A stretch of 64,000 nt of DNA from Cyanodermella asteris (lineage: Eukaryota; Ascomycota; Lecanoromycetes; Ostropales; Stictidaceae). Location: positions 2,000,908 to 2,064,907 of the forward strand of contig UYJD01000002.1 of assembly GCA_900618795.1 (NCBI GenBank). The letters run 5' to 3'. The notes beneath the pieces were generated by a model. The model was given only the letters and a program-made list of their open reading frames with translations, was not told where the DNA came from and did not search any database. Of this stretch, positions 17,965 through 38,026 are shown piece after piece. How positions within the stretch are numbered: position 1 is the stretch's first letter; every line of letters begins with the position of its first letter. A program made the position numbers and the translations under genes.

Positions 17965-18590
17965 GCTCGCATGTTCGAGCGATCAGGAATATTATGAGGC
18001 GGACATGAAGGCGTTGAAGAAGTACGCGCAGCACCTGGAATGGGACCAATGCTAAGCGACGGAGCGGTGCGGATGGTGACTTGATATTGTTGGTAAGGAT
18101 CGAGGTTCAATGACGGGACGTTGGACAATGAGAAAGGCTCGACAGGGCAGAACAGTCTGGTCGAGACAAATGAAGGCGGCAGATGGTGAAATGGGAGATG
18201 TGGTCCCTGCACTTCTCCAACCACAGTGACGCTGTTCGCCGCATCAGCAGCCGGTCTTGGCGTCTCCTTCCCGGCCACACGCGCCGTCTCCATCGACATC
18301 TCCAGCTTCAATCCAGCACCTCTCACCGCGCACCTACCAACCCACATCCACCCTTACTCCTCTCGTCGGCGCATAGCTATTTGGCATTGTCGCCAGATCG
18401 CGAGCACCATATTTGTACACAAGCGCCGCTCGAGTGTACTCACCATCTCAACACGCGCTCCGTCACCGATCTTCGACGCGCCGCTGAAAACAAACAGACC
18501 ACTTGACATTCCTTGCCACCTACGCCCATTGTCCCATACGATCGTACCTCATACTGCTGAGCGCGTTGTCGCGCCAGCTCCGCCGTCAAC
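17965..18590. promoter_or_regulatory. Shared PMR1-RAD21 upstream region
   Basis: About 626 bp between the two start codons, so both promoters must lie here. No ORF of its own. No MCB (ACGCGT) element, which might be expected for cell-cycle control of cohesin, was noticed on a read-through. Confidence 0.6.
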
Positions 18591-20354
18591 ATGTTCTATT
18601 CATCAGATCTTCTGTCCAAGACTGGGCCGCTGGCGAGGATTTGGTTGTCGGCCAACCTCGAGCGCAAGCTGAACAAGTCGAACATTTTACAGACAAACAT
18701 CGAGAACAGTGTCAATGCAATCGTCGATCAAGGCCAGGCGCCTATGGCGCTGCGTCTCAGCGGCCAACTGTTGCTGGGTGTTGTCAGGATTTACAGCAGA
18801 AAGGCGCGTTATCTGATGGACGACTGCAACGATGCATTGATCAGAATCAGAGCAGCATTCAGAGCAGGGAACGCAGACCTGGACATGGCCACGATCAATC
18901 CGGACATTGCTGCGCCCAATACCCTCATGCAGGACACATTGGCTGGAGATATTCCGGGAATTCCCATGCTGGACGAGTCGTTATTTGCGGGCAAATCGCT
19001 TGACTTCAACTTTGGACTCCCCGGTGGCGACCCGCTCGGACTTAGCAGCCAGGTCATATCCTCGCCCGCCATCGAAGTCGGACGACGTGCGCCAGAAGAA
19101 CAGCAGTCACAGCTTTACGACGACGACCTCGGTCTAGATATTGATCTCGACATAGGAAATGTTGAGCCCAGCATCGAAATCGGACGTCGAGCGGAACCAG
19201 AAAAGTCGGGCTACGCGGACTCGCTGCTGGACGACGAAGGGAAACTCAATGACGATGACCTAGGACTAAATTTTGACATCGACGACGACGAGCCTCTGCA
19301 TGTGCACGATAGTGTCGAGCCATCAGCTCCGCCAGAAGACCGCATGGATCTTGATCCGCTGCCAGAAGAGTCGCTGCTACGCGAAGCAGAGGAGCGACGT
19401 GACCAGCGAGACTCGCTGTCTCCCCTATCCTCGACCCGGTCGAGTGTCGCCCGCGAGATGGACGACACCTTCCTCACAGTTGACGCCGAGCCTGACGTAG
19501 CGCAAGCGAAGCAGCCTGTTGCGAAGCGCCGTAAACTATTGCCCGTGGACGAGGAAACCGAGATCAGGAATGCGCAGATCAAGCAAATGCAAGAAGACCG
19601 ATCGGCAATTCTCAAGGCCCCGTCCATGCTTCCCAAAGACCCCGTCCTGCTGGCTCTGATGCAGATGCAGCAAAAAGGTCTTTTCGTATCAAGCATCATG
19701 GGCGACGGCCGATCGCGTGGCTGGGCTCCCGAGCTCCGCGGCATTCTCTCCATCGAAGTCGTCCGAAAGAACGCCGGCACAAAACGTAAGCGTCAGGAAA
19801 TTGAGCTTGACGTCGGCAAATCCGCCACCCCTCGGATCGAGATAGCAGCCGAAGACGAAGAGACCATTCACCCCATCCCAGCCGAAGACCAGGGCATTCC
19901 CACAACGTTCGACGACGACGAAGCTCCCGGCCTCGACGCACCCCTGGAAGACACCTTCGACGTAACGACACTTCCGCTCGTCCACCCTGAAGATCAAGGT
20001 CCGATTTCTCAAGGTACCCAACACGCAGTGCACATGCTGCGCGAGCGCTTCGCCGGCGACAGCGACCCTAGCCAGAGCGGCAGTCCAGCCAGCCAACGCC
20101 GCAGCAACGTCCTCTTCCAAGACATGTTCCCGGAAAAGAACACGACCAAGGCGGATGCTACGAAGATGTTCTTCGAGGTCTTGGTGCTGGCCACCAAGGA
20201 CGCCATCAAGGTCGACCAGCCCGAAGGTCAGCTCGGTGGACCGATCAAGATTCGGGCCAAAAGGGGTCTGTGGGGTGCTTGGGCGGAGGAGAAGGCGGGA
20301 GGCGAAGCGTTTGGCACACAGGCGGAAGGTGCCACTCAGACGGTCACCATCTGA
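18591..20354 (+). CDS. RAD21: Mitotic cohesin kleisin subunit Rad21/Scc1
   Basis: Closes the Smc1-Smc3 ring and is cut by separase at anaphase. 587 residues, no intron. The N-terminal kleisin domain is typical (MFYSSDLLSKTGPLARIWLS, then PMALRLSGQLLLGVVRIYSR). The C-terminal winged helix is at about 525-572 (TKMFFEVLVLATKDAIKVDQ ... RGLWGAW). The middle is acidic and disordered. Two close matches to the separase consensus ExxR occur: IEVGRR (E162-R165) and SIEIGRR (E196-R199), each followed by an acidic DDDLGL motif, so the cleavage cassette looks duplicated. A basic RRKLLPVDEET segment could act as a nuclear signal. It is Rad21 and not Rec8 by N-terminal similarity and paired SxExGR sites. 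Confidence 0.95.
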   Translation: MFYSSDLLSKTGPLARIWLSANLERKLNKSNILQTNIENSVNAIVDQGQAPMALRLSGQLLLGVVRIYSRKARYLMDDCNDALIRIRAAFRAGNADLDMATINPDIAAPNTLMQDTLAGDIPGIPMLDESLFAGKSLDFNFGLPGGDPLGLSSQVISSPAIEVGRRAPEEQQSQLYDDDLGLDIDLDIGNVEPSIEIGRRAEPEKSGYADSLLDDEGKLNDDDLGLNFDIDDDEPLHVHDSVEPSAPPEDRMDLDPLPEESLLREAEERRDQRDSLSPLSSTRSSVAREMDDTFLTVDAEPDVAQAKQPVAKRRKLLPVDEETEIRNAQIKQMQEDRSAILKAPSMLPKDPVLLALMQMQQKGLFVSSIMGDGRSRGWAPELRGILSIEVVRKNAGTKRKRQEIELDVGKSATPRIEIAAEDEETIHPIPAEDQGIPTTFDDDEAPGLDAPLEDTFDVTTLPLVHPEDQGPISQGTQHAVHMLRERFAGDSDPSQSGSPASQRRSNVLFQDMFPEKNTTKADATKMFFEVLVLATKDAIKVDQPEGQLGGPIKIRAKRGLWGAWAEEKAGGEAFGTQAEGATQTVTI

Positions 20355-28122: not shown

Positions 28123-28255
28123 GTTTGCTGGGAGACAAAAACGGCACTTTTGACGGCTTCATAATTCCTACTCATGATACCCCAGAAACGAGAACGCTAT
28201 CACGCTCAAATGGACTAGGAAAATATGTAACAATAATCTCTGGCCCCGCGTGGTC

Positions 28256-29699
28256 TCAGAGTGGGATATCTTCTAGCATTTCCGTGGCTCCTTCTCTGGC
28301 CACGGTCAGGATCACGTCTCCCAAGGTCTTTGTCCGGAAGCCAGCTTCGCAGTAAGTGAAATAGTACTGTTCGACAAGTCAGTCTCGATGTGCAGCTCAA
28401 AGAAAGAATTCGGCGAGGGTGACTTACGTGCCACTTTCGTCGGAACAGCTGGATGTCTGCTTCCGACATTCCCACATATTCTCGTTGAAGCGACGGCCTC
28501 ACCGCGTCGTCGAAATGCGCCTCGAAGTTGTCGCCCCACGTCCTCAGCGTTTTGGCGTAGTGCCCGCCGATATTTCTCACCTCGTCCACCATCAGTCTGT
28601 GGCCGCTGGCCCGGTCGATGCTTTCGACCAGCTTGCCGGTCGTCGGCAGGTGTCCTCCCGGAAAGATGTACTTGTTGATGAAGTCCTCGGTGGCCGCGTA
28701 CACCTCGTACCGGGTCTCGGGAATCGTTATGCACTGGAAGACTCCGATGCCGCCCTCGGGTTTCAGGAGCTTGTCGATGCACTCGAAGTACGTGTCCAGA
28801 TACTCTGCGCCCACAGACTCCAGCATCTCGATCGACACCACCTTGTCGTACAGCCCGCCGCCGGCCGGGACGGGTAGCGATCGGTAGTCGCACAGGAGCA
28901 CCTCGATGCGCTCCGTCAGCCCTGCTTCCGCAATGCGCCTGTCCGCGAGGATCTTCTGCTCCTTGCTCAGCGTCAGAGACGTGACTCGGCAGCCCGTCTC
29001 CTGCACGGCCAGTATCGAGAAGCTGCCCCAACCGGTACCGATCTCGAGGACGTGGTCCGTGGACTTGATTCGCGCATGCGTGATGGCAAGCTTCAATTTC
29101 CTCATTTGCGCGTCCTCCAATGTTTCGCTCTCCGCCTCTTTGGTCCCCGCAGTCGCCCAGATCGGACACGAGTAGGTCATGTCCGGGCTGAGAAAGGCCG
29201 CAAACATGTCATTCGAGATGTCGTAGTGCGCCGCAATGTTCAGACGAGCGTTGGTCAACGAATTGGTCTTGCGCAACAGCCTGCGGACGGGCGCGATGGC
29301 GGAGCTGAAGAACGTCGTCGCATTGCCCAGCGCCTCGCGGTTGACGATGAATATCTCGAAGAAGGAGCGGAGACAGGTGCAGGACACCTCGCCGAGCATG
29401 TACGATTCCGAAAAGCCCAGGTCCGCGAACAGCAGGAGTCGGAGCCAGAAAATGTCCTTTGCGACGGAAAGCTCGGTCTGCGGTGCCGATGCGCTGGGGG
29501 TTTCTTGACCGCAAATGGTGACGGTGCCGTCGCTCTCGCGGATGACGAGCTGTCCATTCTCGATACGTGACAGGATACCCAGAATCGCAGCTCTTGAAGC
29601 GGAGACGAGCGGTGGCCATGTATAGGGTGCGGTTTGCGCCACTAACGAACGGATGGGACGAGTCGCCGTTGACAGGACCGAAGACACAAGGGAAGCCAT
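28256..29699 (-). CDS. Cyclopropane-fatty-acyl-phospholipid synthase-like methyltransferase
   Basis: SAM-dependent enzyme family that adds a methylene or methyl group to unsaturated acyl chains of phospholipids. Exons 29699-28428 and 28366-28256 over a 61-nt intron (28367-28427; donor GTAAGT, acceptor ACAG), phase 0; product 460 residues. The second exon restores the conserved C-terminus (YYFTYCEAGFRTKTLGDVIL). Motifs: AHYDISNDMF (157 on), YSCPIW with C178, SAM site VLEIGTGWGSF (217-227), SIEMLESVG with E291, FPGGHLPT with H350. C178, E291 and H350 correspond by context to catalytic or bicarbonate-binding residues of bacterial CFA synthase. The family is bacterial in origin and patchy in fungi; yeast lacks it. 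The actual product (cyclopropane or methyl-branched lipid) cannot be told from sequence. Confidence 0.9.
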
Positions 29700-30937
29700 T
29701 GTTTGCTAGGATACAAGACGACACACAGGCACACACTGGACAAGAGAGGCCGAAGCAAGGAACGCAATCGATTCCAGAAAAGAATTGTGGACAGCAAGGA
29801 GAGAAAACGGTGTGCGTGTGTGTGCATCTGAGGCGGCACAGCAACAAGCAAGCATGAGAGACTCCCCTGGCAATAGGCAGCTGTACGGCCGTTGTCGCAA
29901 ATGCCGCCGACGAACAGCTTTGGCATCAGAGGAATGGATGGCCCCGCTGGGCGTGGCTGGAATGATGGCCATAAGGTTCGATTTGGGGAGGTCGACGTGC
30001 GGTTCGCATCTTGAAGCTAAATATCGACGATGTCATTGATCGGCTTAGCAAGCAGCGACGCACAAATCAACGGCAGCCGCGACTTGAGCCCACCGGACCC
30101 GCTCGGAGTCTGCGAATCCCGGCCGGAACAAGGCTTTTCCCACCCCTGGCACCTTGCCCTCTTCGTTCTGCGTCTCCGCCTGGCAAGCTGTGAATGCTAC
30201 TAGGAATACCTACCCACCTACCTACCCACCTACCTACATACCCGCACGCAGCCCCTCTGCGGCGCACGCGGCGGCAGCTTGGAACCCCAATCCGATTCGA
30301 GGACACACCACTCGCCATGCATTGGTCGCCCTCCATTCTGCTTTAGTGTCTGTCGTCGCTCCGTTCGACTGTCCTCTAAAGTTTCTTCGTCAATGCGCCA
30401 ATGTTGCCCTGCGAGCTCGGCACCTGCGATGGCTTCGCGGATGGATCATCAACTTGTAGCTGTCCGTGCGCACTTTTGCGGCCGAGCTTCGAATCTTCCG
30501 AACTTATAGTTTTCCATGTGCTGTCCTCTTAGGATATATGGCTGAAATGTTAAAGGCACAACAAAGCTCGAGCAAAGGAGAAACAACCTAGATGAAAGTG
30601 GTGTCCACATTCAGACGTCTTTTGAGAAACTGGATCGAATTCGATTATGAGAAGACCGTGAGTATAACGCTTACCGTGCACGGAATGCAACTGGACTCAT
30701 TTCATGTACACTAGATCAGAGTTTGCACCCCGCTTTGAAAGACGAAACGCACGCCAAGTGTGCCAAGAACTTTCGATGCTAGATTAGAAGTCACCCGCTG
30801 GTCGTCAATCGACTTGGTAGTCCGAACTGCGTCGTACTCACAATCGAGGGGAACACAATTCCATGGCGATCTTTTTGAACACCCCACACAGACCATTGAA
30901 GACTAAACAGACCTCACAGCCTGCTAGACTGAGCTAG
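29700..30937. other. Intergenic region with CCTACCTA repeat
   Basis: Promoter of the CFA-synthase-like gene at the left and the 3' flank of the aminopeptidase gene at the right. No gene supported. Holds the longest copy of the TACCTACC tract. Confidence 0.5.
30205..30240 (+). repeat. Imperfect (CCTA/CCCA)n tract
   Basis: Nine or so tetranucleotide units, mostly CCTA with CCCA interruptions. It is the clearest of the recurrent CTACCTACC tracts seen in noncoding parts of the window. Confidence 0.85.
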
Positions 30938-33595
30938 TCAAGCATACCCGTTTGCCTGCAGACACTCTAGAATCACTTTCTCGTCCCTCTCCCGATAAGC
31001 GACATTGGCACGTATCGTGTCCTGGATCTGGGCAAGACCCTTATCGAAGGCCTTGGTATCCTTGTCCTTGAAGAATGAATCAACCTCGGCAGCCACCTTT
31101 TTATTAGCGAACTTGGTGAGAGACTGTTTGAGGAACCTGTCCAAACTGATACCGGACATGCTTAGCTTGGCGTGCAACTCCTCCCAGTGTGTCTTGATGA
31201 ACTCCCAAAGCGTATTGCGCACTTTGGCGTTGGTGGCCAAGCTGATGGCACCCGTGTGCATGTCTTGCAACTTGATGGCATCGGTGAGGTGAAAGGCGAG
31301 GAAGTCGTTTGCCAGGTCGGCTGTAGGGACTTTACCCATCACAGCCAGGCAAATGTCCTTTCCGTCGATGGATGTTGTTGTCAGGTACTCTTTTTTTACG
31401 GCCTCATATTCTGCTTGTCCTCCATTCTCTATGGCGATCCGGAAGACGGGCAGACGGAGACTGGGGTGGATCGCAGCCGTGTTGCCGGAAGTATAATCGG
31501 AGAACTGCTGTTGTGCCTTCTTGATTGTGGCCTCATGACCGGCACCTCCGGCTGCTGAAATGAGAGCGGAGCGCAGTTGGCCGGTCAAAAAGTCCTCGTC
31601 CAGAGCGAACTCCCATCCGACCTTTTCCACTGCTTGGCTGACGAGGTCATGTGTGAACTTTTTCAGTCCAGCACTGACTGCCTCATTGGTACCAAAGATC
31701 GACCGTACATTGCCCAGCGAGTTAAGAATTTGCTGCCAAATTAGGTAGTGTGTCTCGTTCTTGTACTCGGCGACCAGCGACAGGAGAGCAGCCGAGGTGG
31801 CCTCCCCAGCCAAAGCCAGAGCGGCCGCGTCGCCGACCAAGCCAATGCTGTCGTTTGCAGATAGTTTCTCATGAGCCTTGCCAAGCGCGGTGAGACGTGT
31901 TGGCGGATAGTTCGTGCGGTAGAAACCAGTTGTGTCGGCGTTGATCTTATAGAAGGAGTCGTCAATATCACGGATTGTCTCTGACTTGGCCGTGAGTGCT
32001 CTCTTGTCCAATGATGCTGTCGCTCCATTCTTCAGCCCCAAAGGGATCCACCAAACCGTCTCATCGTCAGCTGCCGAGACATCGCCAGTCGACAGGAATC
32101 TCTTTTGCTGCAAAGTGATCCGGCCAGGCTCTTCGGCAACCGTGACGACAGGGAAACCGATCTTGCGAACCCAAAGGTCCATGAATGCGTTGACGTCCTG
32201 CCCAGACGTCTCCGACAAGGCCGTCCACAAGTCAACTGTCGTCGCATTACCGTACTGGTGTGCTTTCAAGTAGTTTGCAACACCCTGTAATAAGTCTTTC
32301 TCGCCGAGGTGAGCCGACAGCATGCGAAGGCACGAAGATCCCTTGAGGTATGAGACGGCGTCAAAGATCTGGTCCGCTTCGATGGCATTGTTTATGGGTA
32401 CGTCAATTGGATGAGACGAGCGCAGCGCGTCGAGTGTTGATGCTGTCTGCACGGCTTCGACCACAAATTGATTCCACACTTCCCAGTCTGGGTGGAACTT
32501 GTCAATCGCATACCAGCCAATGAGCGTTGCAAACGATTCGTTCAGCCACAGCTCATTCCACCAAGACATCGTGACCAGGTTGCCGAACCACTGGTGAGCA
32601 AGTTCGTGAGCAACGACATAGGCGACGCGGTTGCGGAATTTTGAATCGGAAGTCTTTTCATCGAAGAGGATGGCGGTTGTTCTGTAAGTGACCAAGCCCC
32701 AGTTCTCCATCGCGCCCTGGGTGAACTCGTGCACGGCCAACATGTCACACTTGGGAAGAGGGTAGTCGATCTGAAAGACATCGGAGAACAGGTCGATGGT
32801 CTTGTGCGCGTGCTCAAGAGCGAAATGCCCCTGCTCTTTGTACCCCCGGGTCGTGTAGATGCGCACGGGAATGTTCTTGCCATTGTACTTGCGTTGAGTG
32901 TGATCCTCAATGTACTCAAAGTCGCCCAGAGCCCAGGCCAGTAAGTAGGTAGACATGATGGGCGTCTTCTCGAAAGCCACGACCTTGCGACCGGTCCTGC
33001 CAGGAGTCTGGGACTTCTCGGGCATGTTGCTCAACGCAGTCGCGTCTTCGGGAACCTCAATCTCGAAGTCGAACGAGGCCTTGAGCGCCGGCTCATCGAA
33101 GCACGGAAAAGCTCGTCTTGCGTCGACCGCCTCGAATTGGGTCGAGTACATGCCGTAGTAGCCATCATTCAGCTTCATGGAATCCGCAGTCGGTGCCGCA
33201 GGCTTGTACAACGCGCGGTAAAAGCCGGCCATGCGATTGTTCATGATACCCTGGAAGCGGATCTCCAATATCGTGCTGTCTGTTGGAGCAACCTCCTTCT
33301 CGAGCTTGATGGTCGCAGTCTGAACTTCTTCATCGTAGGTGATGTTTTCGTGCGTGACGGTCTGGCCTTCGATTTCTGCTCTGAAGAGCTTGAGCTCGAT
33401 GGAATTGAGTTTGATCTCCTTGACAGGCTCCCGGACGGTCACGTGGATCTTGACTCTTCCTTCGTAGGTCCATGGGTCGGAGAAGACGAGATCGAACAGA
33501 GATAGCTCGTAATGTGTGGGCTTGACGCTGCTGGGCAGCACCTGTCTTTGCTGAGTCGCCATCTTGCCGTGGATGTCTGTGCAACTGGAAGGCAA
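30938..33595 (-). CDS. APE2: M1 family zinc aminopeptidase (Ape2/Aap1-like)
   Basis: Removes N-terminal residues from peptides. 885 residues, one exon, close to the family length. Visible: substrate-binding GAMEN (294-298), zinc site HELAH (330-334) with the third ligand E353 in LNESFA, and the typical sequence AMENWGLVTYRTTAIL. The C-terminal half is the helical ERAP1-C-like domain. No signal peptide, so cytosolic like mammalian puromycin-sensitive aminopeptidase. The first ATG gives an 11-residue lead before a second in-frame ATG at 33562 (MATQQRQVLP), which matches homologues better and may be the real start. Confidence 0.95.
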   Translation of the reverse strand: MPSSCTDIHGKMATQQRQVLPSSVKPTHYELSLFDLVFSDPWTYEGRVKIHVTVREPVKEIKLNSIELKLFRAEIEGQTVTHENITYDEEVQTATIKLEKEVAPTDSTILEIRFQGIMNNRMAGFYRALYKPAAPTADSMKLNDGYYGMYSTQFEAVDARRAFPCFDEPALKASFDFEIEVPEDATALSNMPEKSQTPGRTGRKVVAFEKTPIMSTYLLAWALGDFEYIEDHTQRKYNGKNIPVRIYTTRGYKEQGHFALEHAHKTIDLFSDVFQIDYPLPKCDMLAVHEFTQGAMENWGLVTYRTTAILFDEKTSDSKFRNRVAYVVAHELAHQWFGNLVTMSWWNELWLNESFATLIGWYAIDKFHPDWEVWNQFVVEAVQTASTLDALRSSHPIDVPINNAIEADQIFDAVSYLKGSSCLRMLSAHLGEKDLLQGVANYLKAHQYGNATTVDLWTALSETSGQDVNAFMDLWVRKIGFPVVTVAEEPGRITLQQKRFLSTGDVSAADDETVWWIPLGLKNGATASLDKRALTAKSETIRDIDDSFYKINADTTGFYRTNYPPTRLTALGKAHEKLSANDSIGLVGDAAALALAGEATSAALLSLVAEYKNETHYLIWQQILNSLGNVRSIFGTNEAVSAGLKKFTHDLVSQAVEKVGWEFALDEDFLTGQLRSALISAAGGAGHEATIKKAQQQFSDYTSGNTAAIHPSLRLPVFRIAIENGGQAEYEAVKKEYLTTTSIDGKDICLAVMGKVPTADLANDFLAFHLTDAIKLQDMHTGAISLATNAKVRNTLWEFIKTHWEELHAKLSMSGISLDRFLKQSLTKFANKKVAAEVDSFFKDKDTKAFDKGLAQIQDTIRANVAYRERDEKVILECLQANGYA

Positions 33596-33656
33596 GCTGC
33601 GATGGGGAAGCAGATTGGTTTCGGTCTTTTATGAACAATCGCCAGGCCAGCCTTGT

Positions 33657-34234: not shown

Positions 34235-37200
34235 TTATTGCAACGTGTCCCAGACCCGGATCACCGAGTCAATAGGTCGTCTGCACACCGGACATTCGCT
34301 GACCTGCTGTCCACACGATTGACAGGCCACCATATGACCGCATCGATTAAACACGGTGTTCCTTTCTTCGACATAGCATATGCGACACGTGTTCTCATTC
34401 ACGCTTGCATCGCTCCAATAAGTCACACCACCGGATCCTGTCTGCTTACCATCTCGAAAAGGGCCCACGTATTTGTTTCCAGACGGCGCATAGACCATTG
34501 TGCCTTGGCCGTTTGGCTGATCATCCTTCCACTCGCCCTGGTAGTTGGAGCCATTGGCGAAGAACATGGTGCCAGTAGAGCTACGTTTGCCGCTGACAAA
34601 CTTGCCCGCGAAGGCGTCACCATTGGCGTAGACAACGGTCCCCATCCCGTGCTGACGTCCAAATTGCAGACCGCAGGACGACCAACCAGTGCCAAAGTTA
34701 TTCTGACCTGGCACATGCGCGGGCGAAAAGAGCTCTTTCAGGGTGACTGGGTACCCTCTACCAGCTAGAGTCTTCTTGTGCATATCTGCAAGGACCGGCT
34801 CTGTTATGATGATGGTACCATGCGCGATACCGGCGTCGAGGAAAGACGAAGAGCCGTCCAAGGATGCCGGAATCCCACCAGGCCGTTCGCGATAGAACCT
34901 CGGTTCCTTTTGCTTAGAGGCGTCCTCGTCCGGTCGAAAGATGACATCCTTGATTGTGGAATTCTCGGGGACGAGCATACTGGTGCTGGCTTCCAAAGCA
35001 GGTTCCAATCTGTGTCCCGACGACTGTGAGGAATCGGGAATTTTTCGCAGCGGGTAAAAGTGCTTGACTAAGATGTAGACGTGCTTCTGCGGATTTTGGG
35101 TGGTCATGGTGGGGCCAGCCGAGTCTGGCTCTTCAAGCTGAACGAGACGCTCTTCAACCTCGCTGGGCCGTCCGCTGTCGGGCACCTGGGTATCATTAGA
35201 GATCAAGGCAGTGTCGATGTTGGCAAGCTCAGGGTTGCCGGCTAGCGATGGTGGCATCAAGGGCAACACGTCCACAACGTCTCCAGGCATGACGTGTGAC
35301 TCCTGTGTCGCTTGCGACCCATCATCTGTACCACTCATCACAATATCCTGATCGGAATTTTCAGAAGATGACGAAGCAGAAGCATGCTCGGTGACCGAGA
35401 CTGGCGCAGGCGCACTCTGTTTGAGAGACGCAAGAGACTCTGCGGCCCGTGTTCGCGCGATCTCCTCGTACTGCCGCCTCGAGTCTTCTGCCTGTTCACC
35501 AGTAAGAACATGGACCCAGACATGAGTGCCGTTCATGCTATCTTGTAAGGTAGCGAGGGGAAGTTCGAGGTGTGCATTCTGAACGGGTGGACAGTATTGG
35601 CGAATATCTCGCTGCATGTCCAAGGGCCAAACGCAGAATTGCGAGTTCACCAGTGGCGGCAGGTTTTTGAGTTTCTCGTGCAAGTCATAGATCGTTTCGT
35701 GCTTTTGGATGTTGCAGACCACCACGTTGCCGCCGTTATCACTCCAAGTGTCGACAAAGCCAGCCCTATGTTTGTGGTTGGTAAAGCCGGTAGACAAGTG
35801 CGCCGCAACCGCGATTTCGGATTTGTCGTCGCCGCCGAGGTCTGACGTTATATCTTGCGGTAGAGGGTTGTACACATCATGAGGTTCACGTTGTGAGCTT
35901 CGTAGAAGCATTCCGTCGAGAAGATCCAGTCGGAGATACACAACCACACATGCAACAGCGCTTGATGATTCGGCCCCGTCAGAACCTTCATGGCTAGTGA
36001 CAGCTGCCCGATAAGTCTGCGGAAGGACCGAGCCCCGCGAACTGTTGCGCGTAGACCACCGCATCCATGGAGTACCGGGTCCTCTCGGCTGCATGACAGG
36101 TTGGAATCTTCCCGAGCCAAGTTCGCCGCTGTGTGTGACGAAGCTGTACATCTGATAGGCGTTGCCCTGTATGACTACCTGATCGCTCAGCTTGATTTTG
36201 TGAACCAGCTTCTTCCATTTGCGTTTCTCGGGATCGTAGGATTGCCGTGGGAGCTCCATGAAGACGGCATGAGGCGACTTTGAAGGCAGATTGCCAATCA
36301 TGGCATTTGCAAGTTCCTGGGTCGAGCTAAAGGATGCGTAATCGAGACCGGGATCAATGGGCTTCACTTCATCCTCCAGATGCGGGCATGTGGGCAGCGA
36401 AGGACGGATATCGGGCTGAAGATCTGTCTTGTTATCGAAAAACTCAACCATAAGATCTAAAAGTTGGCTTGATTTTGCCGACGGCTTTCGCTGCAAGCCG
36501 AGGTTGACCTCATAGCGGATCAGCTCTTCCAGGGCCCTCCAAACTTCGAACACAGACGGCAGCTGTGGATGTCCGTACCACTCAAGCACCGTTACGACTT
36601 GATCCAGCAAGACGTCCTGCATGCTCGAAGGATGTTTCCTTGACCTTTGCTTCTTGTGAAGGCAAATTTTGAGCGCATCAAGCATGGGCTGAAAATTGTG
36701 CAGAGGTTCGGCCAGTCCGTCGTTGATCTCGTAGCTTTCAATGAGCTTCCTGAAGGGAACGATTTCGAACCAGATGGCCAAGGCCGAGATGAGGGAGCTC
36801 TGGACTGGGGATGCGTTTGCTGTAATCAAGCCTCGGTATCCAGTCTTCAGCACCGAGTCCCAGTCCGAATTCTGGTGGAATTGATTGTGGTACCACAATG
36901 CGCGAGTAGGATCTTCGACCAGACGCACGTATGCTGTGAAAGCAACCCGGTCGTCTTGAAGCAAGGGCCGATATTGCAGGTGCTGTCGCGAATGAATCTG
37001 GCCCCAAGGACCTGCAAATCGCGGCCAGCCAAAGTCCGAATTTATCGAGGTGAACTGGTGGTGAGATTTCTGGAACTTGTGTACTCGCGGCTCGACCGGG
37101 TTGTACATTACACAGCCAAACTGCGCAGTAACCTCCCACCAAGATGCTGCTTGATCGTCCCCGTTGGTGCCGTCTCCACCCGAGCCGGAGCTGGACTGGA

Positions 37201-38026
37201 CTGCATTGCATTCGAGATAGACGCTCATGTACTCAGTGCCGTCATTGCCGCGCGGGAACACCTTGAGACTGAACTGATACTGTGTTCCGTCGCTCTTTGT
37301 GAGGACGACAGGCTCGGAAGAGCGATATCGTGATTTGTTGGGAGCCTCTTTGGTGCCATGAAAGCCCTCGAACGTCCAATTCAGTCGAACCGTCTCTTCC
37401 ATAGGTGTGTATTCAGGGTCATCGAGAGGAGCGAAGATCAGTTTGGTCCAGCGATCGTCCTCCAGGGCAGAGACCTCTTCCTCTCGGCGTCTGTGCATCT
37501 CCTCCAGCTCTTCTGGGCCCGGGACCGAAGTGTCTTGCTTGTATGTTTGTAGAAATTCCCTGTGATCCGAGTCGTAATCGTCATCTTCCGAGCCAGTAGC
37601 ATCTCCTTCGTCGATCTGTTCGTCCTCATCTTCCGAGGCAGCTTCGTTGGTGTTGCCTGCATCCTGCTGGGTGCCTTCGCCAGGCTCTTCCGCAACGGGC
37701 CGTGAGGTTCTATCCTCTGGCTCAGCTGTGCCCTCCATTTCCACGTCTCCTTGTCGGTCGTGATCTTGCCCCGACGGTTCAGCGCCGACAGGTTGAGCGG
37801 AGTCAGAGGCGGGCTGGGCGGGAGGAGTGGCAGCGGCAGCGGATGAGACAGAGGCGCTTTCCATGTCGCCGGGTGGCTCAACGTTTGTTGGGGCGTCTTG
37901 GGTGTCTGCCATGTCGGTTACCGGGATGGCAGGGATGTTGTCGTGCAGAGAGGCGGACAGGCTCGAGGTGGAGGCGGACAGTAGAGCGTCGTCGGTCAGG
38001 CGAGGTGAGGAGACGGCAGCACTCAT
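34235..38026 (-). CDS. MATH / inactive USP-like / MORN / RING protein, putative ubiquitin ligase
   Basis: 1263 residues, one exon. Order: acidic disordered N-terminus (1-190), MATH/TRAF-like domain (about 211-385), USP-like region (about 395-700), ubiquitin-like linker segments (about 760-1080), three or more MORN repeats (about 1120-1204) and a C-terminal C3HC4 RING (C1214, C1217, C1229, H1231, C1235, C1238, C1245, C1248). MATH plus USP is the USP7/Ubp15 frame. The Cys box starts correctly (TGYRGL, 395-400) and aligns on through ANASPVQSSL, but the catalytic Cys is P407. In the His box, the motif YSFVTHSGELGSGRF keeps HSG but has R640 where the catalytic His should be. It therefore cannot be an active deubiquitinase of this class. 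The RING suggests E3 activity, with MATH and dead USP as binding modules. Confidence is high for the RING, MORN and MATH, moderate for the USP. Confidence 0.88.
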   Translation of the reverse strand: MSAAVSSPRLTDDALLSASTSSLSASLHDNIPAIPVTDMADTQDAPTNVEPPGDMESASVSSAAAATPPAQPASDSAQPVGAEPSGQDHDRQGDVEMEGTAEPEDRTSRPVAEEPGEGTQQDAGNTNEAASEDEDEQIDEGDATGSEDDDYDSDHREFLQTYKQDTSVPGPEELEEMHRRREEEVSALEDDRWTKLIFAPLDDPEYTPMEETVRLNWTFEGFHGTKEAPNKSRYRSSEPVVLTKSDGTQYQFSLKVFPRGNDGTEYMSVYLECNAVQSSSGSGGDGTNGDDQAASWWEVTAQFGCVMYNPVEPRVHKFQKSHHQFTSINSDFGWPRFAGPWGQIHSRQHLQYRPLLQDDRVAFTAYVRLVEDPTRALWYHNQFHQNSDWDSVLKTGYRGLITANASPVQSSLISALAIWFEIVPFRKLIESYEINDGLAEPLHNFQPMLDALKICLHKKQRSRKHPSSMQDVLLDQVVTVLEWYGHPQLPSVFEVWRALEELIRYEVNLGLQRKPSAKSSQLLDLMVEFFDNKTDLQPDIRPSLPTCPHLEDEVKPIDPGLDYASFSSTQELANAMIGNLPSKSPHAVFMELPRQSYDPEKRKWKKLVHKIKLSDQVVIQGNAYQMYSFVTHSGELGSGRFQPVMQPRGPGTPWMRWSTRNSSRGSVLPQTYRAAVTSHEGSDGAESSSAVACVVVYLRLDLLDGMLLRSSQREPHDVYNPLPQDITSDLGGDDKSEIAVAAHLSTGFTNHKHRAGFVDTWSDNGGNVVVCNIQKHETIYDLHEKLKNLPPLVNSQFCVWPLDMQRDIRQYCPPVQNAHLELPLATLQDSMNGTHVWVHVLTGEQAEDSRRQYEEIARTRAAESLASLKQSAPAPVSVTEHASASSSSENSDQDIVMSGTDDGSQATQESHVMPGDVVDVLPLMPPSLAGNPELANIDTALISNDTQVPDSGRPSEVEERLVQLEEPDSAGPTMTTQNPQKHVYILVKHFYPLRKIPDSSQSSGHRLEPALEASTSMLVPENSTIKDVIFRPDEDASKQKEPRFYRERPGGIPASLDGSSSFLDAGIAHGTIIITEPVLADMHKKTLAGRGYPVTLKELFSPAHVPGQNNFGTGWSSCGLQFGRQHGMGTVVYANGDAFAGKFVSGKRSSTGTMFFANGSNYQGEWKDDQPNGQGTMVYAPSGNKYVGPFRDGKQTGSGGVTYWSDASVNENTCRICYVEERNTVFNRCGHMVACQSCGQQVSECPVCRRPIDSVIRVWDTLQ

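What the first reader, a model, noticed from the sequence alone, without database searches (positions are those of the whole stretch)
34235..38026. Ubiquitin-ligase-like protein built on a dead USP7-type deubiquitinase
One uninterrupted frame joins MATH, a USP fold with both catalytic positions replaced (P407 for Cys, R640 for His), ubiquitin-like linkers, MORN repeats and a C3HC4 RING. An active USP7/Ubp15 removes ubiquitin; here the same frame carries a RING, which usually adds it. A dead USP could hold ubiquitin or substrate for the RING, and MORN repeats could bring it to membranes. I know MATH-USP proteins and RING proteins in fungi, but not a described function for this combination.
Basis: partly seen in the sequence, partly recalled or inferred. 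Interest (0 to 1): 0.75.

Follow-up and report, generated by a model that had tools for sequence, protein, structure and literature searches.

The report
Fungal RING protein with dead USP7
This fungal gene encodes a relative of the ubiquitin-removing enzyme USP7 that has lost its catalytic residues, as have its relatives in many moulds and lichen fungi, and that ends in an intact-looking RING, the part that usually attaches ubiquitin, so databases that call it a deubiquitinase are probably wrong.

The parts
34235..38026 (-). whole gene, 1263 aa, MATH - dead USP - UBL - UBL - MORN - RING
37412..38026 (-). residues 1-205, N-terminal region, mostly outside the model
36914..37408 (-). MATH (TRAF-like) domain, residues 207-371
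   Evidence: Pfam MATH_2 216-365; beta strands in model
37031..37036 (-). residues D331-F332, counterpart of the USP7 substrate-contact pair D164-W165
   Evidence: D in 164 of 164, W in 156 of 164 family rows, F in this copy; role of D164/W165 from passages of PMC7419626; that the aligned pair is D164-W165 is inferred from the DWG motif
35870..36889 (-). USP7-type fold, residues 380-719, without the catalytic residues
36797..36808 (-). residues P407 to S410, where active USP7 has the catalytic Cys
36545..36547 (-). E494, counterpart of the USP Glu that contacts ubiquitin Arg72
   Evidence: E in 134 of 164 rows; role from passages of PMC10719079
36107..36109 (-). R640, where active USP7 has the catalytic His
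35417..35824 (-). first ubiquitin-like fold plus helix, residues 735-870
   Evidence: order of strands and helices in model
35099..35413 (-). linker, residues 872-976, probably disordered
   Evidence: pLDDT under 50
34787..35089 (-). second ubiquitin-like fold, residues 980-1080; relatives match Pfam USP7_ICP0_bdg in the counterpart region
34418..34693 (-). MORN repeats, residues 1112-1203
34238..34399 (-). C3HC4 RING of IAP type with C-terminal tail, residues 1210-1263

Best explanation
The gene encodes a RING-type ubiquitin ligase made from a USP7/Ubp15 paralogue that lost its protease. MATH picks a substrate through the kind of peptide groove that USP7 uses; the dead USP and the two ubiquitin-like folds act as spacer and docking platform; MORN and the RING tail may dimerise the chain; the RING brings E2~ubiquitin to the substrate. 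Shown here: the gene, the fold (by model), loss of Cys and His in the rows examined, a complete RING sequence, stronger conservation of MATH, MORN and RING. Inferred: ligase activity, substrate choice by MATH, scaffold role, dimerisation.
For: Fold: (whole-length match to USP7 chain 9a9w_O, E 4.9e-31). Loss: Cys aligned in 7 of 164, His in 5 of 164, both in 0 of 164. RING complete in 147 of 164; Arg right after the last ligand in 147 of 147; Ile between the first two Cys in 146 of 147. Nearest solved RINGs: cIAP1 (E 4.3e-11), cIAP2, MYLIP/IDOL, BIRC7, XIAP, MIB1, MDM2. Identity of the window copy to P0001 by part: RING 0.80, MORN 0.74, MATH 0.72, first UBL 0.61, N-terminus 0.55, USP 0.53, second UBL 0.53, linker 0.37. 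MATH contact Asp in 164 of 164. USP7 with Cys and His boxes elsewhere in the genome.
Against: No activity data. 17 of 164 rows lack a complete RING: 15 are unnamed proteins from sources tagged ena or lgn, 14 of which end near the second ubiquitin-like part (one, P0029, is a 670-aa piece), which would fit gene calling without introns but is not proven; P0024 (NCBI) stops inside the RING and P0096 (NCBI) lacks its second half, which may be gene-model faults. Looser counting finds a Cys within 6 residues of the site in 20 of 164 rows, a His within 3 in 9, and both in 3 (P0027, P0028, P0033). Asp is still aligned in 95 of 164. The DWG motif may be general to MATH domains rather than a sign of shared substrates (recalled). 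The window copy has F, not W, at the second contact and lies on a long branch.
Confidence: 0.6

Rival explanations
1. Dead USP as a ubiquitin reader: the USP region still binds a ubiquitin tail (on E2, substrate or chain) and so steers or limits the RING.
For: Glu that contacts ubiquitin Arg72 kept in 134 of 164 rows, F or Y after the His position in 159 of 164, the Asp three before that Glu in 162 of 164; this stands against near-total loss of Cys and His (weighted 0.04 each). PMC10719079 (passages) shows that a USP without fingers can still bind ubiquitin by another loop.
Against: Second fingers segment 12 residues here, family median 14, active USP7 35; the other segment is unchanged in length, 33 and 33, but the model shows no hairpins there. 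The window copy and P0001 have Ser at that Asp. Weighted, the Glu is kept at 0.68 and ranks only 89th of 262 columns in conservation. Conservation may be structural.
Confidence: 0.2
2. RING without ligase activity: the RING and MORN only dimerise the chain, and the protein competes with the active USP7 for substrates as a decoy.
For: MATH contact residues conserved; MORN1-type proteins dimerise (abstract of PMC7725318); IAP- and MDM2-type RINGs are the nearest and are dimeric (recalled).
Against: The E2-contact Ile and the Arg after the last ligand (roles recalled) are kept in 146 and 147 of 147 complete RINGs, which a mere dimeriser would not need.
Confidence: 0.15
3. A deubiquitinase with an unusual active site, as the database names say.
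For: Names such as ubiquitin carboxyl-terminal hydrolase and ubiquitin thiolesterase; a review says that USP52 was reported to cleave chains without the usual triad (section 4 of PMC10919355); 20 of 164 rows have some Cys within 6 residues of the site.
Against: No Cys near the site in this copy, Cys and His in place together in 0 of 164 rows, and replacements vary between lineages, unlike a new active centre.
Confidence: 0.04
4. Chance frame, gene-model fusion or decayed copy.
For: The window copy is fast-evolving and fails the Pfam UCH cut-off.
Against: Same order of parts in named relatives of four classes; ORF length not explained by chance.
Confidence: 0.01

Closest known systems
USP7 / yeast Ubp15 (MATH-USP-UBL deubiquitinase)
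   Same: MATH, USP fold, ubiquitin-like folds in the same order; best fold match; MATH contact Asp kept
   Different: no Cys-His pair in place, one fingers segment shortened, two rather than five ubiquitin-like folds in the model, MORN and RING at the C-terminus
Fungal 'MATH and UCH domain protein' records (Aspergillus, Penicillium, Talaromyces, Histoplasma, Arthroderma and others)
   Same: same architecture and family
   Different: the names imply a working hydrolase; the catalytic pair is missing there too
IAP, MYLIP/IDOL and MDM2 RING ligases
   Same: C3HC4-type RING, alignable to residue 1258 or 1259 in the best matches
   Different: no USP part in those proteins (recalled)
TRAF and TRIM37-type proteins (RING with MATH in one chain; recalled)
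   Same: a RING paired with a MATH domain
   Different: RING at the N-terminus, no USP fold or MORN (recalled)
USP39, USP52 and other pseudo-DUBs
   Same: USP folds that lack the usual triad (section 4 of PMC10919355)
   Different: no RING or MORN in the same chain (recalled)

Membership tests
USP7/Ubp15 deubiquitinase | N-terminal MATH/TRAF-like domain | tested here: met
USP7/Ubp15 deubiquitinase | USP fold | tested here: met
   (model)
USP7/Ubp15 deubiquitinase | catalytic Cys, His, Asp (C223, H464, D481 in USP7) | tested here: not met
   P407/S410, R640, S658 in this copy; Cys and His together in 0 of 164 rows; Asp in 95 of 164
USP7/Ubp15 deubiquitinase | five C-terminal ubiquitin-like domains | tested here: not met
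   two ubiquitin-like folds in the model, then MORN and RING
USP7/Ubp15 deubiquitinase | fingers subdomain | tested here: inconclusive
   second segment 12 residues against 35, first segment 33 against 33; no hairpins in the model, low confidence there
RING E3 ligase | eight zinc ligands in C3HC4 order | tested here: met
   C1214, C1217, C1229, H1231, C1235, C1238, C1245, C1248
RING E3 ligase | E2-contact Ile and Arg after the last ligand (roles recalled) | tested here: met
   I1216, R1249; 146 of 147 and 147 of 147 complete RINGs
RING E3 ligase | ubiquitin transfer with an E2 | not testable with these tools
   needs biochemistry
Fungal MATH-UCH-MORN-RING family | MATH, USP-like, MORN and RING in one chain | tested here: met
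Pseudo-DUB | USP fold without the catalytic residues, across relatives | tested here: met
Pseudo-DUB | no hydrolase activity | not testable with these tools
   needs an assay
Membrane-binding MORN protein | binds lipid membranes | not testable with these tools
   sequence resemblance only

The most novel reading that the evidence does not exclude
An inverted USP7: a paralogue that kept USP7's substrate-peptide pocket but exchanged ubiquitin removal for ubiquitin attachment, so that in many filamentous ascomycetes the same short motifs are read by two opposing machines, an eraser (USP7/Ubp15) and a writer (this protein).
Probability: 0.2. Interest if true: 0.85.

Novelty: new variant of a known kind. 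Interest (0 to 1): 0.6.

Why it matters
A review counts about 13% of deubiquitinases as inactive and says that for some no function is known (section 4 of PMC10919355). Here a dead USP is joined to a RING in fungi of at least four classes, beside a USP7 with intact boxes in the window genome, so the question what a dead USP is for can be tested in a laboratory mould. It also means that many database entries named ubiquitin hydrolase or thiolesterase are probably misnamed and could be miscounted in surveys of fungal deubiquitinases.

Tried and rejected
Chance frame or gene fusion: rejected. Lone decayed copy: rejected. The MATH_2 search of the own genome found nothing, not even this gene, so it was uninformative. 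Identity of the organism: not settled; the tree places the window with P0001 inside a set that holds Lecanoromycetes, on a branch of 1.81. The tree has one outgroup row (own USP7, flagged as long), so it does not test whether the family is one clade. Ubiquitin-contact scoring: mixed and left open. No named Sordariomycete or Leotiomycete was recognised by me in the listed hits, but the lists are capped, so absence is not shown.

Literature, ten searches of open-licence PMC papers: 'MATH and UCH domain' 0 papers (with RING); MATH, MORN, RING, ubiquitin, USP and fungi together 0; AFUA_5G01750 0; MORN, MORN repeat, RING finger, E3 ubiquitin ligase and fungal together 0. Wider searches gave listings: pseudo-DUB 6, fungal deubiquitinase with USP7 and MATH domain 4, UspA of Aspergillus nidulans 14 of which 10 listed, inactive USP or USP fold 3, USP7 MATH contacts 6. 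Seen as passages only: PMC9599802 (lists UBP15 with MATH), PMC10719079, PMC6627422 (no mention of MATH, USP7 or Ubp15), PMC7419626, PMC10919355 (passages, section 4 in full). Abstract only: PMC7725318. Other listed papers, among them PMC3375289 on a Cryptococcus Ubp5, were not opened. Structural alignment rows do not exclude families that are not listed.

Full report
What is there. The frame 34235-38026 on the minus strand is open for 1263 codons, which chance does not explain. Pfam finds MATH_2, MORN and a C3HC4 RING above their cut-offs and a UCH trace below its cut-off. The next large frame on that strand, 30938-33595, is a separate M1 aminopeptidase.

Catalytic residues. The own genome has a USP7 on another contig with the GATCYLN and AGHYY boxes (its open frame starts inside MATH). 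Against it the window has P407 (ungapped) or S410 (gapped) for Cys, R640 for His and S658 for Asp. In 164 family rows (the window plus 163 proteins) Cys aligns in 7, His in 5, both in 0, Asp in 95. With loose limits, a Cys lies within 6 residues of the site in 20 rows, a His within 3 in 9, and both in 3 (P0027, P0028, P0033). Weighted for redundancy, Cys and His are each kept at 0.04. The rows are not independent: by the names, 72 of 164 are Aspergillus or Penicillium proteins, and 227 of the 347 proteins found were not listed and not examined.

Ubiquitin site. Some positions that in active USPs touch the ubiquitin tail are kept more often: the Glu for Arg72 in 134 of 164, F or Y after the His position in 159 of 164, the nearby Asp in 162 of 164, though the window copy and P0001 have Ser there. 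Weighted, the Glu falls to 0.68 and rank 89 of 262 columns, while the Asp is 0.96 and rank 15. The roles of the Glu and the aromatic residue come from passages of PMC10719079, which also reports that a USP without fingers can bind ubiquitin through another loop; a role for the Asp is recalled. Against binding, the fingers segment before the LKRF-like strand is 12 residues here, median 14 in the family, 35 in the active USP7; the other segment keeps its length (33 and 33), but the model shows no hairpin and low confidence there. I call ubiquitin binding open.

RING. It aligns with cIAP1 (E 4.3e-11), cIAP2, MYLIP, BIRC7, XIAP, MIB1 and MDM2, in several of them nearly to the last residues, where such RINGs have a dimerising tail (recalled). 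A complete RING is present in 147 of 164 rows; the Arg after the last ligand in 147 of 147. Of the 17 without, 15 are unnamed proteins of sources tagged ena or lgn, 14 of which end near the second ubiquitin-like part; gene calling without introns would explain this, which is an inference. The other two are NCBI records: P0024 stops inside the RING and P0096 lacks its second half.

Which parts are kept. Between the window and P0001 identity is 0.80 in the RING, 0.74 in MORN, 0.72 in MATH, 0.61 in the first ubiquitin-like part, 0.53 in the USP and in the second ubiquitin-like part, 0.37 in the linker. Against the other rows RING, MORN and MATH (medians 0.44, 0.38, 0.42) again exceed the USP (0.26), and the same holds for P0031 against 8 distant members (0.57, 0.43, 0.41 against 0.30). 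In MATH, the counterpart of USP7 D164 is Asp in 164 of 164 and of W165 is Trp in 156 of 164, Phe here; passages of PMC7419626 state that D164 and W165 contact P/A/ExxS motifs and that USP7 substrates of this domain share one surface. So the substrate end and the RING end are under stronger constraint than the former protease between them.

Distribution. Proteins of this family were found in Aspergillus, Penicillium, Talaromyces, Histoplasma, Coccidioides, dermatophytes, lichen fungi, Diplodia, Viridothelium and Glutinoglossum; look-ups of seven species confirm Eurotiomycetes, Lecanoromycetes, Dothideomycetes and Geoglossomycetes, with Thelocarpon unplaced. In a tree of 50 rows the window pairs with P0001 (support 100) on a branch of 1.81, within a set that holds Lecanoromycetes.

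Mechanism. Most likely a RING ligase whose MATH chooses substrates and whose dead USP serves as scaffold; ligase activity and substrate choice are inferred. That MORN adds membrane targeting is not supported by the closest structures: the abstract of PMC7725318 reports no evidence for membrane or vesicle binding by T. brucei MORN1, binding of single phospholipids, and dimerisation of all three MORN proteins studied. A dimerising MORN would suit an IAP-type RING.

What is known. Databases hold the family as MATH and UCH domain protein, zinc finger RING-type, ubiquitin thiolesterase and similar. Ten paper searches were made; the five aimed at this architecture or name returned no paper, and five wider ones returned listings of which six papers were opened in part (see Tried and rejected). 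Pseudo-DUBs are a known class (section 4 of PMC10919355). The combination with a RING over several fungal classes is the new element here, as far as these searches reach.

Noticed in passing
window 30938-33628 minus: M1 aminopeptidase with ERAP1-like C-terminal domain, directly downstream of the gene.
   Followed up: no
window 28218-29705 minus: CMAS-type methyltransferase (E 4.5e-66), possibly related to fungal sphingolipid C9-methyltransferases (the latter recalled).
   Followed up: no
window 18561-20351 plus: Rad21/Rec8-type cohesin subunit.
   Followed up: no
P0154, P0157, P0159, P0160, P0161, P0162 and P0126, P0133, P0142, P0143: Six members (Arthroderma, Microsporum, Nannizzia, Trichophyton) have a Cys aligned with the catalytic Cys but no His in place; four Blastomyces members have the His but no Cys.
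   Followed up: partly
window 34238-38026 minus: The window copy and P0001 sit on a long branch (1.81 changes per column) and alone of 164 rows carry Ser at an Asp kept in the other 162.
   Followed up: partly
family entries: Several family members are named ubiquitin carboxyl-terminal hydrolase or thiolesterase although Cys and His are not both present; one Aspergillus clavatus record (P0080) carries a name beginning deoxyhypusine synthas.
   Followed up: no
P0096 and P0024: Two annotated relatives have a broken RING in the deposited protein: P0096 lacks the second half, P0024 stops inside it; perhaps gene-model faults.
   Followed up: no
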